Assembly: GCF_021172045.1 (NCBI RefSeq)
Contig: NZ_CP087164.1
Coordinates: 2,232,001-2,296,000 of the forward strand
Length of the DNA stretch: 64,000 nucleotides
Reading direction: 5' to 3'
DNA from: Capillimicrobium parvum
GTDB lineage: Bacteria; Actinomycetota; Thermoleophilia; Solirubrobacterales; Solirubrobacteraceae
Shown piece by piece: positions 27,787 to 33,301 of this stretch (position 1 is the stretch's first letter; each line of letters begins with the position of its first letter). Both the position numbers and the translations under genes were made by a program. Under the pieces are notes generated by a model. It searched no databases and was not told the origin of the DNA. It saw nothing but the letters and a program-made list of their open reading frames with translations.

Positions 27787-28824
27787 ATGACGGCGACCGT
27801 CGCGGTCGACGCCAACGGTGCCGATCTGGGTCCGCGCGAGGTCGCCGAAGGGGCGCTGATCGCCGCGCGCGAGGGCGTCAAGGTGATCGTCTACGGCCCG
27901 GCCGACCGGATCGGCGAGGTCGGCCCCGGCGTGACGGTCGTCGACTCGCCCGTGTCGATCGCCAAGTCGCCCGAGCCCGCCTCCGCGGCGCGGTCGACCC
28001 CGGACGCCTCGATCGTCCGCGCGGCCCGCGCGGTAGCCGAGGGCGAGGCCGACGCGCTCGTCAGCGCCGGGTCCACCGGGGCCGCACTCGCGGCGGGGCT
28101 GTTCAACATCAAGCGCGCCCGCGGGATCTTCCGGCCCGCGCTGGCCCTCCCGCTGCCGATCCCCGACCATCCGGTGACGCTGCTCGACGTGGGAGCGAAC
28201 GCCGACGTGCGCCCGGACCATCTCGTCCAGTTCGCCTTCATGGGCGCCGCGCTGGTGACGCTGCTGCACGGCATCGCGCGCCCGCGCGTCGCCCTGCTGT
28301 CCAACGGCGAGGAGGCGACGCGCGGCAACGAGCTGGTCCTCGAGGCCCACGGGCTGCTGGAGCAGCGCGCGGCGGGCAGCTTCGGGATGGAGTTCATCGG
28401 CAACGTCGAGGGCACGCACGTCGTCGACGGCACCGCCGACGTCATCGTCGCCGACGGCTTCACCGGCAACATCACGCTCAAGCTCATCGAGGGCGTCTCG
28501 CAGACGCTGCTGCACGTGGTGCGCGCGCGGGCGACGGCGACCTCGCGCGGCAAGATCGGCGGCGCGATGCTGCGCCCGGCCCTGCGCGGGCTGCGCGACG
28601 AGCTGGACCCCGAGGGCCCGGGAGGCGCCTACCTGCTCGGACTGCGCAAGCTCGGCGTCATCCCGCACGGCCGGTTCACGCGGGTCGGCTTCGCCAACGC
28701 CATCCGCGCCGCCGCCCGCGGCGTCGAGGAGGACGTCACGGGGCGTACCATCGCTGCCATGGAGTCTGCCGGCGCGCTCCGTCGTCCCCCGTCCGACAGC
28801 ACCGCTACGGTGGCCGCTGAATGA
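27787..28824 (+). CDS. plsX: Phosphate acyltransferase PlsX
   Basis: A 345-residue PlsX, which makes acyl-phosphate from acyl-ACP for phosphatidic acid synthesis. Motifs include the start TVAVDANGADLGPREV, VSAGSTGAALAAG, LLDVGANADVRPDHLVQFA and VVADGFTGNITLKLIEG. The family usually opens AVDAMGGD; here it is VDANGAD. It overlaps acpP in an ATGA junction, coupling it to the carrier protein whose thioester it uses. Confidence 0.95.
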   Translation: MTATVAVDANGADLGPREVAEGALIAAREGVKVIVYGPADRIGEVGPGVTVVDSPVSIAKSPEPASAARSTPDASIVRAARAVAEGEADALVSAGSTGAALAAGLFNIKRARGIFRPALALPLPIPDHPVTLLDVGANADVRPDHLVQFAFMGAALVTLLHGIARPRVALLSNGEEATRGNELVLEAHGLLEQRAAGSFGMEFIGNVEGTHVVDGTADVIVADGFTGNITLKLIEGVSQTLLHVVRARATATSRGKIGGAMLRPALRGLRDELDPEGPGGAYLLGLRKLGVIPHGRFTRVGFANAIRAAARGVEEDVTGRTIAAMESAGALRRPPSDSTATVAAE

Positions 28825-29069
28825 CCCGAGAGGACGTCTTCCAGCTCATCCGTGCCCACCTCGCCGACGAGCTCGAGGTGGATCCGGAGCGCATCCGGCA
28901 GGACACGCGCTTCAAGGAGGACCTCGAGGCCGACTCGCTCGACCTGTACACCCTCGTGCAGGAGCTCGAGGACTCCTACGGCGTGCGCATCTCCGACGAG
29001 GAGGCGACGAAGATCCTCACCGTGGGTCAGGCGGTGGACTTCGTCATGGCGCACGGCGTCAACGCGTAG
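28821..29069 (+). CDS. acpP: Acyl carrier protein
   Basis: An 82-residue ACP with the phosphopantetheine attachment Ser in EADSLDLYTLVQELE and acidic helices on both sides. It is the carrier of growing acyl chains in fatty acid synthesis. It is translationally coupled to plsX, and rnc starts two bases after its stop. Confidence 0.96.
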   Translation: MTREDVFQLIRAHLADELEVDPERIRQDTRFKEDLEADSLDLYTLVQELEDSYGVRISDEEATKILTVGQAVDFVMAHGVNA

Positions 29070-29070
29070 C

Positions 29071-29763
29071 GTGGAGCAGCTGCGCAAGTTGCTCGACGAG
29101 CTGCCGGAGGAGCTGTCCCGGCAGGTGTTCACCCACGCCTCGTGGTCGGAGCGGCGGTCCGACTCCTACTCGCGTCTGGCGTTCCTCGGCGACTCGGTGC
29201 TGGGATTGGCGGTCACCGCCCACCTGTACCCGCGCCTGGAGGCCGAGCGCTTCGGCGCCGGCCGGCTGACGAAGATCCGGGCCCAGACGGTGTCCGGCCC
29301 CTCGTGCGTGGCGGTCGCCGAGCGGCTCGGCGTACCCGAGCGCCTGCAGGCCGCGGCGCCGGTGGGCGCGGGCCAGACCGCGGCGACGGTGATCGGCACC
29401 GACCGGGTGCTCGCTTCGGTGACCGAGGCGGTCATCGGCGCCTGCTACCTGCACGCCGGCTACGAGCGGACGGCCGAGGCGGTCGTCGAGGCCTTCCAGC
29501 CCGAGCTGTCACAGGCGCTCGAGCATCCGGTGGACTTCAAGTCGACGCTGCAGGAGCGCCTCGCCCGCGCCGGCGACATCGTCGCCTACGAGGTGACGGC
29601 CGAGCTCGGGCCACCGCACGACCGCACGTTCGAGGTCGTCGCATCGGTGGACGGACGGGTCGTCGGGCGCGGCACGGGTCGCTCGAAGAAGGCCGCCGAG
29701 CAGGAGGCGGCGCGCCTGGCCATCGTTCAGCTGCAGGACGTCGAGGGGGAGGACGCCGGCTGA
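29071..29763 (+). CDS. rnc: RNase III-family protein lacking expected catalytic acids
   Basis: A 230-residue protein in the standard acpP-rnc-smc position. Residues 1-145 have the RNase III fold and residues 155-225 a double-stranded RNA-binding domain (DFKSTLQERLARAGDI, GRSKKAAEQEAARLAI). The usual signature LEFLGD reads LAFLGD, so the glutamate equal to Aquifex Glu40 is Ala37, though Asp41 remains. At the second site the usual D-x-x-E reads Ser116-x-x-Glu119 (LASVTEAVIGACYL). Two of four metal ligands are therefore missing. It may bind and not cut RNA, or it may use altered chemistry. GTG 29071 gives the right length. Confidence 0.85.
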   Translation: MEQLRKLLDELPEELSRQVFTHASWSERRSDSYSRLAFLGDSVLGLAVTAHLYPRLEAERFGAGRLTKIRAQTVSGPSCVAVAERLGVPERLQAAAPVGAGQTAATVIGTDRVLASVTEAVIGACYLHAGYERTAEAVVEAFQPELSQALEHPVDFKSTLQERLARAGDIVAYEVTAELGPPHDRTFEVVASVDGRVVGRGTGRSKKAAEQEAARLAIVQLQDVEGEDAG

Positions 29764-32700
29764 TGCATCTCAAGTCGCTGACGCTGAAGGGCTTCAAGTC
29801 GTTCCCGGACCGCACGCGGTTGGAGTTCGGCTCCGGCGTGTCGGTGATCGTCGGGCCCAACGGCTCGGGGAAGTCAAACGTCACCGACGCGGTGCTGTGG
29901 GCCCTGGGCGAGCAGTCGCCGCTCGCGGTGCGCGGCGCGTCGATGCAGGACGTCATCTTCGGCGGCGGCCGCGGCGTGCAGGCGCGCAACGCGGCGGAGG
30001 TCGAGCTCGTCCTCGACAACGGCGAGGGCTCCGAGCTCTATCCGATGAGCGAGATCTCGATCCAGCGCCGACTGGACCGCTCCGGCGACGGCGAGTACCG
30101 GCTCAACGGCGCGCGCTGCCGGCTCGTCGACGTCCTGGAGGTCCTGTCGGACACGGGCCTCGGCAAGGAGATGCACTCGGTCGTGTCCCAGGGGCGCATC
30201 GAGGCGATCGTGACGAGCAAGCCGCGCGACCGGCGGCTGCTGATCGAGGAGGCGGCGGGGCTCGGCAAGCACCGCAAGCGCCGGCGCCGGGCGCAGCTCA
30301 AGCTCGAGCGCACGCAGGACAACCTGGACCGCGCGCTCGACGTGGAGCGCGAGGCGCGGTCGCGGCTGCGGCCCTTGAAGCGGCAGGCGGAGGCGGCGGA
30401 GCTGCACGAGCGCCTGGAGCGCCAGTCGCTCGAGGCGCGCTGGGAGCTCGCGCGCGACGTGGTCCGGTCCAAGCGGGCGGATCTGGGCGAGGCCGAGGCC
30501 GCCGCGGTCGCGGCGCGCGCGGCGCGCGAGGAGGCCGAGCGGCGGCTGACGGATGTGGCGGCGCGGCGCGAGCGGGCCGAGGAGGCCCTGCAGCGGCGCA
30601 CCGAGCAGCGCGAGGCGATGGCCGGGCGCGTCTACGCGGCCCGGACCGCGCGCGACCGCGTGGACTCGCGGCTCGAGCGCGCGGCGGAGACGGCGTCGAC
30701 GCTCGCCGAGCGCGTCGAGCGGCGGGCCGTGCAGATCGCGGCGCTGGAGAGCGAGGCGGCCGCGGACGCGCCGGACGAGGCGGGGCGCGAGCGGATCGCC
30801 CAGCTCGAGGCCGAGCTCGAGCGCCTGGACCGCGAGCACGAGGCCGAGCTCGAGCGCGAGCTGGAGACGCTGGAGGCCGAGCGCGCCGCGGCCGAGCAGC
30901 GCGCGGCCGGGCTGCAGCAGGTCGTCGCGGAGCGCCGCGAGGCGCTGAAGGCGGCCGACGCCGCGGCGGAGGCCGTGCGGCGCGAACGGCGCGAGTCCGA
31001 GAAGGCGGTCGAGGCGGCCCGGCGCGCGGCGGCGAAGGTCGGCGCCGAGCTCGCGGCGGCCAACCAGTTCCTGCGCTCGCACGCCGGGGCGCCCGGCGGC
31101 GCGCGGGCGCTGTCGGGCGAGCTCCAGGTCGACGAGGGCTACGAGCTCGCGCTCGCCGCGGCGCTCGACGGGCGGCTGGGCGCCGCGGTCGTCGAGGACC
31201 TGCCCGCGGGCGCGGCGCTGCTCGATCGCGCGGGGCGCGACGGCGGACGCGCGCTCGTGCTCGGCGACACGACGGATGCCGGCGGCGCGCGGTCGCCCGG
31301 CGCCGTCTCCGCGGCGGCTCCCCCTCCCGGCGCGGTTGCGCTGGCGTCCCTCGTGCGCGGTCCCGAGGCGGCCCGCGCACTGCTCGACGCCGTCTGGGTC
31401 GTCGAGGACCTCGCCACCTTGCCGGAGGACTTCGCCGGGGTCGCGGTGACCCGGACCGGGCGCGCCTGGTCGGCGCTCACCCGCGAGCTGCGGCAGGTCG
31501 CCGCGGGCGGCGCGGAGCGCGTGCTCGCCGAGCGCAACCGTCGCGACCGCCTCATCGCCGATTCCGAGCGCGCCGTCCAGGCCGAGCAGGCCGCGCTGGC
31601 CGCCGCGGAGGGCGCGAGCACCGCCGTCGCCGCGGCCGACGCCGAGCGCGACGAAGCCGACCAGGCCGCCCGCCAGGCCGATCGCGAGCGGTCGGCCGCC
31701 GGCGAGGAGATGCGCCGCGCGGGCTGGCTCATCGAGCAGCGGCGCAAGGCCCCGCAGGAGGGCGCCGCCGCGGTGCGCCGCGCCCAGGCCGAGGGCGAGC
31801 TGGCCGCCGAGCGCCGCACCGCCGAACGCGCCGCGCGCGAGCGCGCCGAGCGCGGCCGGCGCCTCGAGTACCTGCGCGCCCAGCGGACGGCCGACGAGCA
31901 GCTGGAGCCGCTGGCCCGGACCCTCGCCGCGACGCTCGGCCGGGTCAGCGCCGCGGTCGCCAACCGCGTCGAGGCGGTGGAGGCCGAGCTCGCCGCCGAC
32001 CGCGAGGCGGGGGAGGGCGTCGCCGCCGAGCTGCGCGCCTGCGCCCGCGAGGAGGCGGAGATACAGAACCAGCTGCGCCAGCGCGGCGACGCGCTGACCA
32101 CGGCGGAGGTCCGCGCGCAGCAGCTGCGCGACGCCGAGGCCGAGGCGAGTCACGAGCTGGGCGAGCTCGCGGAGCGGCTCGGCCTGGAGGCGGAGCCGGC
32201 GACCGAGGCGCTCGAGCCCGAGCAGGCCGATGCGCTGCGCGCGCGGATCGAGCGGCTTGCGAAGCGCCGCGAGCAGCTCGGGCCGGTGAACCCGCTCGCG
32301 AAGGACGAGTACGCGGAGGCCGTCGCGCACGTCGAGGAGCTCGAGACCCAGCGCGAGGACCTCGAGACGGCGCTGCGTGAGCTGCGCCAGCTCATCCGCG
32401 ACACCGACCGCGAGATCCGCGAGACGTTCGAGGCGACGTTCACGGCCGCCGCGCAGAACTTCGAGGAGCTCGCCGAGCACGTCTTCCCGGGCGGACGGGG
32501 GCGGCTGCGGCTCGTGCGCGAGGACGCCGGCCCGCGCGCGGTCCTTGGCGGTCAGGGGCCGCAGGACGGCGCCGAGCCGGCCTCCGAGGAGGCGGCGGAG
32601 GCCGCCGCCGAGGCCGAGGACGAGCCCACGCCCGAGGAGGACCTCCTCGGCGTCGAGATCGAGATCACCCCGGCCGGCAAGTCCACGAAGCGCCTCACGC

Positions 32701-33005
32701 TGCTGTCCGGCGGCGAGAAGTCGATGACCGCGATCGCGTTCCTCTTCGCGGTGTTCCTCGCCAAGCCGTGCCCGTTCTACATCCTCGACGAGGTGGAGGC
32801 GGCGCTGGACGACCTGAACCTCGAGCGCTTCCTCGCGCTGCTCGAGCGCTACGCCGACCGCGCCCAGTTCATCGTGGTCACCCACCAGAAGAAGACGATG
32901 GACGCGGCGGACTGCCTGTACGGCGTGTCGATGGGGGGCGACGGCGTGTCGAAGGTGGTCAGCCGCCGCCTGCCCGGGCGGGCCGCAGCCGCCACCGCCG
33001 CCTGA
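29763..33005 (+). CDS. smc: Chromosome segregation protein SMC
   Basis: A 1080-residue SMC ATPase that forms the condensin core. The N-terminal head has GFKSFPDRT and Walker A GPNGSGKSN. Two long coiled coils surround a hinge (about residues 440-580) that contains a low-complexity stretch (SPGAVSAAAPPPGAVALAS). The C-terminal head has the signature LLSGGEKSMTAIAF and Walker B PFYILDEVEAALDD. An acidic insert (EPASEEAAEAAAEAEDE) precedes the C-terminal strand. It is somewhat shorter than typical 1150-1190-residue SMCs. It overlaps rnc by one base. The usual partners scpA and scpB are not in the window. Confidence 0.96.
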   Translation: MHLKSLTLKGFKSFPDRTRLEFGSGVSVIVGPNGSGKSNVTDAVLWALGEQSPLAVRGASMQDVIFGGGRGVQARNAAEVELVLDNGEGSELYPMSEISIQRRLDRSGDGEYRLNGARCRLVDVLEVLSDTGLGKEMHSVVSQGRIEAIVTSKPRDRRLLIEEAAGLGKHRKRRRRAQLKLERTQDNLDRALDVEREARSRLRPLKRQAEAAELHERLERQSLEARWELARDVVRSKRADLGEAEAAAVAARAAREEAERRLTDVAARRERAEEALQRRTEQREAMAGRVYAARTARDRVDSRLERAAETASTLAERVERRAVQIAALESEAAADAPDEAGRERIAQLEAELERLDREHEAELERELETLEAERAAAEQRAAGLQQVVAERREALKAADAAAEAVRRERRESEKAVEAARRAAAKVGAELAAANQFLRSHAGAPGGARALSGELQVDEGYELALAAALDGRLGAAVVEDLPAGAALLDRAGRDGGRALVLGDTTDAGGARSPGAVSAAAPPPGAVALASLVRGPEAARALLDAVWVVEDLATLPEDFAGVAVTRTGRAWSALTRELRQVAAGGAERVLAERNRRDRLIADSERAVQAEQAALAAAEGASTAVAAADAERDEADQAARQADRERSAAGEEMRRAGWLIEQRRKAPQEGAAAVRRAQAEGELAAERRTAERAARERAERGRRLEYLRAQRTADEQLEPLARTLAATLGRVSAAVANRVEAVEAELAADREAGEGVAAELRACAREEAEIQNQLRQRGDALTTAEVRAQQLRDAEAEASHELGELAERLGLEAEPATEALEPEQADALRARIERLAKRREQLGPVNPLAKDEYAEAVAHVEELETQREDLETALRELRQLIRDTDREIRETFEATFTAAAQNFEELAEHVFPGGRGRLRLVREDAGPRAVLGGQGPQDGAEPASEEAAEAAAEAEDEPTPEEDLLGVEIEITPAGKSTKRLTLLSGGEKSMTAIAFLFAVFLAKPCPFYILDEVEAALDDLNLERFLALLERYADRAQFIVVTHQKKTMDAADCLYGVSMGGDGVSKVVSRRLPGRAAAATAA

Positions 33006-33102
33006 GTGACGCATCTCCCATCCGGTCTGAGTGACGCATCTCCCATCCGGTCTGAGTGACGCATCTCCCATCCGGCCTGAGTGACGCATCTCCCATCCAG
33101 CG
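33003..33102. repeat. 25-bp tandem repeat, four units, directly after smc
   Basis: Units start at 33003, 33028, 33053 and 33078. The unit is TGAGTGACGCATCTCCCATC followed by CGGTC. The first TGA is the smc stop codon. Units differ at one or two bases. A related TGACGCAT recurs at 33122-33129. It may be a minisatellite or a protein-binding array. Confidence 0.85.
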
Positions 33103-33301
33103 TGGTGTGGGTCTGCGAAAATGACGCATATGTCACGTTCGACCCATCACCCTGACGCCGGCGTCGTCTACGTCGGTCCGTCCCTGACCACGTCGCTGGT
33201 CCGCGTCGTCCTCGCGCTCGCCGCCGCCGGCCGCTGACCGTCGTCCCGTCGTCCCGTCGTCCCGTCGTCCCGTCCGGCACGGGCCGCACCCCGCGCCGGG
33301 C
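33103..33301. other. Non-coding stretch between smc repeat and ftsY promoter
   Basis: With the tandem repeat this forms the 312-base gap 33006-33317. It holds an 8-bp microsatellite (TCGTCCCG, about four copies, 33239-33275). A possible 38-codon frame at 33121-33237 begins with ATG and encodes THMSRSTHHPDAGVVYVG followed by a hydrophobic stretch; it has no ribosome-binding site and no -10 and is probably not a gene. No hairpin with a U-tract was seen. Confidence 0.5.

What the first reader, a model, noticed from the sequence alone, without database searches (positions are those of the whole stretch)
29071..29763. RNase III without two of four catalytic acids
LEFLGD reads LAFLGD (Glu to Ala37), and the second-site Asp is Ser116 (SVTEAVIGACYL). 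The gene context (acpP-rnc-smc) and the double-stranded RNA-binding domain are intact. Such an enzyme should bind but not cleave efficiently with the usual two metals. It could be a regulatory dsRNA-binder, or rRNA processing may rely on other RNases.
Basis: partly seen in the sequence, partly recalled or inferred. Interest (0 to 1): 0.6.

Follow-up and report, generated by a model that had tools for sequence, protein, structure and literature searches.

The report
RNase III with a rebuilt active site
A whole order of soil bacteria (Solirubrobacterales) carries, as its only RNase III found here, an enzyme that has lost most of the acidic residues thought to hold its two magnesium ions but keeps the two indispensable ones and has gained a positive charge where human Dicer has its catalytic lysine, so it is probably a rebuilt RNA-cutting enzyme rather than a dead one.

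Summary
The rnc gene (window 29071-29763, between acpP and smc, the only RNase III in this genome) encodes A37 for E. coli E41 and S116 for D114. It also has S34 for E38, A63 for E65, Q102 for E100, R112 for S110 and A165 for Q165. Of seven conserved acids only D41 (Ec D45) and E119 (Ec E117) remain. In 114 genomes of the same order, E41 is Ala in 114/114, D45 is kept in 114/114, E117 in 113/113, position 114 is S (94) or E (19), and position 110 is R/K in 110; the four exceptions have E114. Sister Thermoleophilia keep E41 (70/70). E41->A maps to one change on a tree. The kept acids are exactly those that bind MgB in E. coli 7R97, and the gained Arg/Lys is in the column of Dicer's catalytic K1806. 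E38/E65/Q165 are the three sites of the engineered E. coli 'bacterial Dicer'. The fold, dsRBD, pre-rRNA stems and selective constraint are intact. Most likely it is a still-active, remodelled RNase III with weak or no MgA binding. A dead dsRNA binder is the main rival. Activity is untested.

The parts
29071..29763 (+). rnc: RNase III ortholog, 230 aa, GTG start
   Evidence: AF2 model pLDDT 95.5, best PDB match E. coli RNase III 7r97, Z 20
29170..29172 (+). S34 = Ec E38 (RNA-facing valley acid lost)
29179..29181 (+). A37 = Ec E41 (MgA ligand lost)
   Evidence: ligand role from PMC9291653
29191..29193 (+). D41 = Ec D45 (MgB ligand kept, invariant)
   Evidence: PMC9291653
29257..29259 (+). A63 = Ec E65 (RNA-facing valley acid lost)
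29374..29376 (+). Q102 = Ec E100 (variable in the order)
29404..29406 (+). R112 = Ec S110, gained base (R106/K4 of 114), same column as Dicer K1806 and a Drosha Lys
   Evidence: Drosha alignment; PMC13334501
29416..29418 (+). S116 = Ec D114 (acid lost; E in 19 of 113 relatives)
29425..29427 (+). E119 = Ec E117 (bridges MgA and MgB; invariant)
   Evidence: PMC9291653
29563..29565 (+). A165 = Ec Q165 (the +3 G reader lost)
   Evidence: PMC9291653
29539..29727 (+). double-stranded RNA-binding domain, residues 157-219
   Evidence: PF00035 E 3.7e-16
28821..29069 (+). acpP, directly upstream
29763..33005 (+). smc, directly downstream (MHLKSLTLKGFKSFPDRTRL; its ATG overlaps the rnc stop)

Best explanation
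This is the ordinary chromosomal RNase III of Solirubrobacterales with a rebuilt active site, most likely still able to cut double-stranded RNA. SHOWN: the residue changes, their order-wide fixation, the single origin of E41->A, the intact fold and dsRBD, the gain of Arg/Lys at the Ec S110 column, and the persistence of the rRNA processing stems. INFERRED: (1) the homodimer binds dsRNA more tightly, because most repelling acids of the catalytic valley are gone; (2) MgB is held normally by D41 and E119, while MgA has only E119 left and is weakly held or absent; (3) R112, one helical turn before S116, contacts the scissile phosphate as Dicer K1806 does and makes up part of the missing positive charge; (4) with Ec E38, E65 and Q165 all replaced, long dsRNA is cut with little sequence preference into about 22-nt pieces, as by the engineered E38A/E65A/Q165A enzyme; (5) it still opens the 16S and 23S precursor stems. 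Metal need (high Mg, or Mn) is probably altered. The confidence given is for retained, remodelled catalysis (steps 1-3), not for step 4.
For: In the window protein only D41 and E119 survive of seven acids. Across 114 order genomes: A at 41 in 114, D45 in 114, E117 in 113/113, acid at 65 in 0, R/K at 110 in 110, and the four without a base all have E114. Among acidic positions of the nuclease domain, these two alone are 100% conserved. E. coli genetics ranks the same two as indispensable (D45A, E117K/A/Q inactive), while E41A and D114A cut weakly in excess Mg (PMC8708148). In 7R97, MgA binds E41+E117, MgB binds D45+E117, and D114 binds no metal directly (PMC9291653). K1806 lies 4 residues before D1810 in Dicer, as R112 does before S116; it stabilises the phosphorane in QM/MM work, and mutating its mouse equivalent inhibits catalysis (PMC13334501). 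R112 aligns with a Lys of Drosha. Q165, E38 and E65 are the EcEEQ sites; all three are changed in 53/114 order genomes and 0/70 sisters. No relaxation of the nuclease domain relative to the dsRBD. Compensated 16S/23S stems in 15 genomes. High-confidence fold.
Against: No activity data exist for any member. From memory (not retrieved here), the E. coli E41A/D114A double mutant needs about 39 mM Mg for half-maximal activity, which would be unphysiological without compensation. E65A is reported inactive in vivo in E. coli (PMC8708148 Table 1). The same loss of acids plus gain of Arg would also suit a metal-free dsRNA binder. The base/acid exclusivity at 110/114 rests on about two independent events. 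Side-chain contacts of R112 were not measured: only a monomer confidence profile and fold matches were available.
Confidence: 0.6

Rival explanations
1. A catalytically dead RNase III kept as a dsRNA-binding regulator or ribosome-assembly factor, like plant RNC1 or mitoribosomal mL44; rRNA maturation is done by RNase J, RNase E/G and others.
For: All valley acids other than D45/E117 (E38, E41, E65, D114) are lost in the window protein; acid loss plus R112 favours RNA binding without metal; mL44 chains match the fold at Z 14-15; RNase J and RNase E/G are present; E. coli E38A binds RNA strongly, and E65A is inactive in vivo (PMC8708148).
Against: D45 and E117 are invariant over 114 genomes, the only such acids in the domain; degenerate trypanosome KREPB domains by contrast do not conserve the metal residues (PMC5770545). 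The new base sits at Dicer's catalytic-lysine column; nuclease-domain constraint is normal; rRNA stems persist with compensatory changes.
Confidence: 0.27
2. A fully ordinary two-metal RNase III in which other side chains or backbone groups replace E41 and D114, so nothing functional has changed.
For: 19 of 113 relatives carry E at 114; E. coli E41A and D114A single mutants keep weak activity in excess Mg; sisters live with A or N at 114; position Ec 109 is acidic in 98/114, but Ec itself has E109.
Against: No new invariant acid appears anywhere in the nuclease domain; Ala at 41 itself is fixed; E65 is also lost; a positively charged residue is gained beside the site, which would repel MgA.
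Confidence: 0.1
3. An inactive subunit of a heterodimer with a second, catalytic RNase III, as in the trypanosome editosomes.
For: Known for KREPB/KREN pairs (PMC5770545).
Against: The one-contig genome has a single PF00636 hit and a single homolog; genomes in the class census nearly always show one match.
Confidence: 0.03

Closest known systems
E. coli RNase III and its E38A/E65A/Q165A 'bacterial Dicer' (EcEEQ, PDB 7R97)
   Same: Fold (Z 20), domain order, D45/E117 pair; E38, E65 and Q165 are replaced in the window protein at the same three sites as in the engineered variant (PMC9291653).
   Different: EcEEQ keeps E41 and D114 and has Ser at 110; the window protein has Ala, Ser and Arg there, and its activity is unknown.
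E. coli E41A and D114A laboratory mutants
   Same: The two lost active-site acids are the same positions (PMC8708148).
   Different: There they were made in a wild-type background; here they are natural, fixed in an order and paired with S110R and E65A.
Dicer / Drosha RNase III domains
   Same: A basic residue 4 before the D114 column (K1806 in Dicer, Lys in Drosha; Arg or Lys here).
   Different: Dicer keeps all four acids and two metals; no PAZ or helicase here.
Pseudo-RNase III proteins (plant RNC1, KREPB4-10, mL44)
   Same: Catalytic acids lost (reported for RNC1 and KREPB; for mL44 from own knowledge, only its fold match was seen here).
   Different: Those are eukaryotic or organellar; KREPB metal-binding residues are degenerate, whereas here D45 and E117 are invariant and the gene is the sole bacterial rnc.

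Membership tests
Bacterial (class 1) RNase III | One RNase III domain followed by one dsRBD, above Pfam cut-offs | tested here: met
   PF14622 78 bits, PF00636 57.2, PF00035 59.9, all above cut-off
Bacterial (class 1) RNase III | Curated equivalog score of TIGR02191 (166.25 bits) | tested here: not met
   151.7 bits; 102 of 249 class genomes do reach it
Bacterial (class 1) RNase III | Catalytic acids E41, D45, D114, E117 | tested here: not met
   A37, D41, S116, E119
Bacterial (class 1) RNase III | Orthologous gene position (acpP-rnc-smc) and fold | tested here: met
Bacterial (class 1) RNase III | Divalent-metal-dependent dsRNA cleavage with 2-nt 3' overhangs | not testable with these tools
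   needs purified protein
Mini-RNase III | RNase III domain without dsRBD | tested here: not met
   dsRBD present at 157-219
Dicer/Drosha | Two RNase III domains, with PAZ/helicase or other accessory domains | tested here: not met
   230 aa, one RNase III domain
Dicer/Drosha | Basic residue 4 before the second-site Asp | tested here: met
   R112 / S116; R or K in 110 of 114 relatives; aligned to a Drosha Lys, Dicer K1806 by numbering
Catalytically dead RNase III (RNC1/KREPB type) | Essential metal ligands D45 and E117 degenerate | tested here: not met
   both invariant, in 114/114 and 113/113 order genomes

The most novel reading that the evidence does not exclude
Solirubrobacterales possess a natural RNase III that works with essentially one tightly bound metal (MgB on D41/E119) plus an Arg/Lys in the place of the other, and, having replaced Ec E38, E65 and Q165, naturally dices long dsRNA into roughly 22-nt pieces: a bacterial enzyme that reached the Dicer catalytic-lysine design and Dicer-sized products independently.
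Probability: 0.2. Interest if true: 0.85.

Novelty: new variant of a known kind. Interest (0 to 1): 0.64.

Why it matters
RNase III is a textbook two-metal nuclease whose four acids are treated as invariant. An entire bacterial order that lives with two of them, as its sole RNase III, is a natural experiment on which parts of the site are truly needed. If active, it shows how a two-metal site can be turned into a metal-plus-arginine site, bears directly on the role of Dicer K1806, and offers a natural enzyme for making siRNA pools. If dead, it would be a bacterial order without RNase III cleavage that still keeps long rRNA processing stems.

Tried and rejected
A second RNase III or mini-III was sought and not found. 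First attempts at scoring rRNA stems with free duplex folding and with a wrong register gave noise; a best-helix search and re-registered arms gave the clear stems. Cas9 was searched in 232 order genomes as a sign of RNase III use: only one genome (G257) has a real Cas9 with Cas1 and a Cas2-like frame, but no repeat array was found beside it, so no weight is placed on it. No paper in the library links Solirubrobacter or Thermoleophilia with RNase III. Heterodimer partner rejected for lack of a second domain. Misalignment rejected: ungapped motifs, invariant flanking R35/G40/D41 and I122/G123.

Full report
Observation. The frame at 29071-29763 translates into 230 residues with a RNase III domain and a dsRBD above Pfam cut-offs; the NCBIfam RNase III equivalog scores 151.7 bits, below its cut-off of 166.25. 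The gene lies directly between acpP and smc, with plsX upstream and ftsY downstream; in 73 relatives with A at this site and enough flanking DNA, acpP and/or smc were found beside it in all, both in 64. It is the sole PF00636 hit and sole homolog in the one-contig 5.95 Mb genome. Three more acids are missing, Ec S110 has become R112, and Ec Q165 is A165.

Distribution. I collected RNase III genes from 114 genomes of the window's order (families f1-f4; the named relatives from genome contigs are Solirubrobacteraceae, Conexibacter, Patulibacter and Thermoleophilaceae) and from 70 genomes of other families of the class. In the order: position 41 A 114/114; 45 D 114/114; 117 E 113/113; 65 A92 I13 P6 S2 V1; 114 S94 E19; 110 R106 K4 S3 H1; 38 E59, the rest A, G, S, T, D or V. 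In the sisters: E41, D45 and E117 70/70, E65 69/70, 114 A47 D14 N7 E2, 110 N48 S11 T10 G1. The separate (partly overlapping) set of 44 contigs with A41 from genome contigs agrees, with two contigs (L066, L067) that keep E65. On a maximum-likelihood tree built without the trait columns E41->A needs one change (quick search; the branch holding the order has SH-aLRT 92). D114 had already been lost by many sisters, so the likely sequence is D114 first, tolerated because E41 remained, then E41 and E65 with the gain of the base (inference).

Which acids stay. Of 18 acidic positions of the window protein in the nuclease domain only D41 and E119 are invariant in the order. In E. coli, D45A and E117K/A/Q abolish activity in vivo, whereas E41A and D114A leave weak activity in excess magnesium; E65A is inactive in vivo (PMC8708148 Table 1). 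In the E. coli post-cleavage structure MgA is held by E41 and E117, MgB by D45 and E117, D114 binds no metal directly, and E38 and E65 are RNA-facing acids at the ends of the valley (PMC9291653). So the order keeps the complete MgB ligand pair and has removed the ligand specific to MgA. From memory only: the E. coli E41A/D114A double mutant was reported (Sun, Jun and Nicholson 2004) to need about 39 mM Mg2+ against 0.46 mM for wild type; I could not retrieve that paper.

What was gained. R112 (Lys in one divergent genus) is among the few positions fixed in the order and absent from sisters. It is four residues before S116 in the same predicted helix. Human Dicer K1806 is four residues before D1810; it hydrogen-bonds the scissile phosphate in QM/MM work, and changing its mouse counterpart inhibits catalysis (PMC13334501). 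In the phmmer alignment R112 faces a lysine of human Drosha. All 94 order genomes with Ser at 114 have Arg or Lys at 110; the four genomes without a base at 110 all have Glu at 114. This looks like compensation, but represents about two independent events, so it is suggestive only.

An unplanned match. The engineered E. coli 'bacterial Dicer' is E38A/E65A/Q165A; it loses sequence preference, binds dsRNA more tightly and yields about 22-nt products (PMC9291653). The window protein is E38S/E65A/Q165A. In the order, E65 and Q165 are both replaced in 112 genomes and all three sites in 53; no sister or outgroup sequence examined has the E65/Q165 pair or the triple.

Alive or dead. Evidence for activity is indirect. 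The ratio of nuclease-domain to dsRBD divergence is 1.08 in the order and 1.07 in the sisters, so the domain has not been released from constraint. The model is confident (mean pLDDT 95.5) and closest to RNA-bound RNase III (7r97 Z 20.0, rmsd 3.2 over 212; 2nug Z 19.7, rmsd 2.9 over 204). The substrates persist: in 15 order genomes the sequences flanking 16S rRNA and 23S rRNA form long helices (23-bp window 96% paired with 5 pairs changed on both sides; 22-bp window 91% with 6); dealing the 3' arms among genomes reached the 23S pairing in 0 of 1000 trials and the 16S pairing in 1 of 1000. Persisting stems can also serve assembly, and RNase J and RNase E/G are available, so a dead, dsRNA-binding protein remains possible (0.27). 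KREPB domains of trypanosomes, which are dead, do not conserve the metal residues (PMC5770545), unlike this family.

Conclusion. It is an rnc ortholog that fails the catalytic-acid definition of the family yet is not a decayed pseudoenzyme by its pattern of conservation. I judge it a new variant of a known kind. No report on it was found in the paper library, which holds open-licence papers only. Chemistry, product length and biological role are inference until the enzyme is assayed.

Noticed in passing
window 33002-33098: 3.9 near-perfect copies of a 25-bp unit CTGAGTGACGCATCTCCCATCCGGT between smc and ftsY; the core occurs nowhere else in the window.
   Followed up: partly
window 33238-33274: 4.6 perfect copies of CCGTCGTC just upstream of ftsY.
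   Followed up: no
L327 5700-10199 (G257): A type II CRISPR locus (Cas9 1079 aa, Cas1, a Cas2-like frame) in one Solirubrobacterales genome without a detectable repeat array.
   Followed up: partly
L257, L279, L280, L281, L282: 23S rRNA matches spanning 3.5-5.3 kb instead of 3.0 kb in several Thermoleophilia, suggesting large insertions or introns.
   Followed up: no
L035: A contig deposited as Bifidobacterium breve carries a Solirubrobacterales rnc locus (75% identity to the window), so the record is probably mislabelled.
   Followed up: no
sister-class loci, e.g. L010, L013, L019: Most other Thermoleophilia have Ala or Asn at Ec D114 while keeping E41 and E65: a milder departure worth its own assay.
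   Followed up: partly
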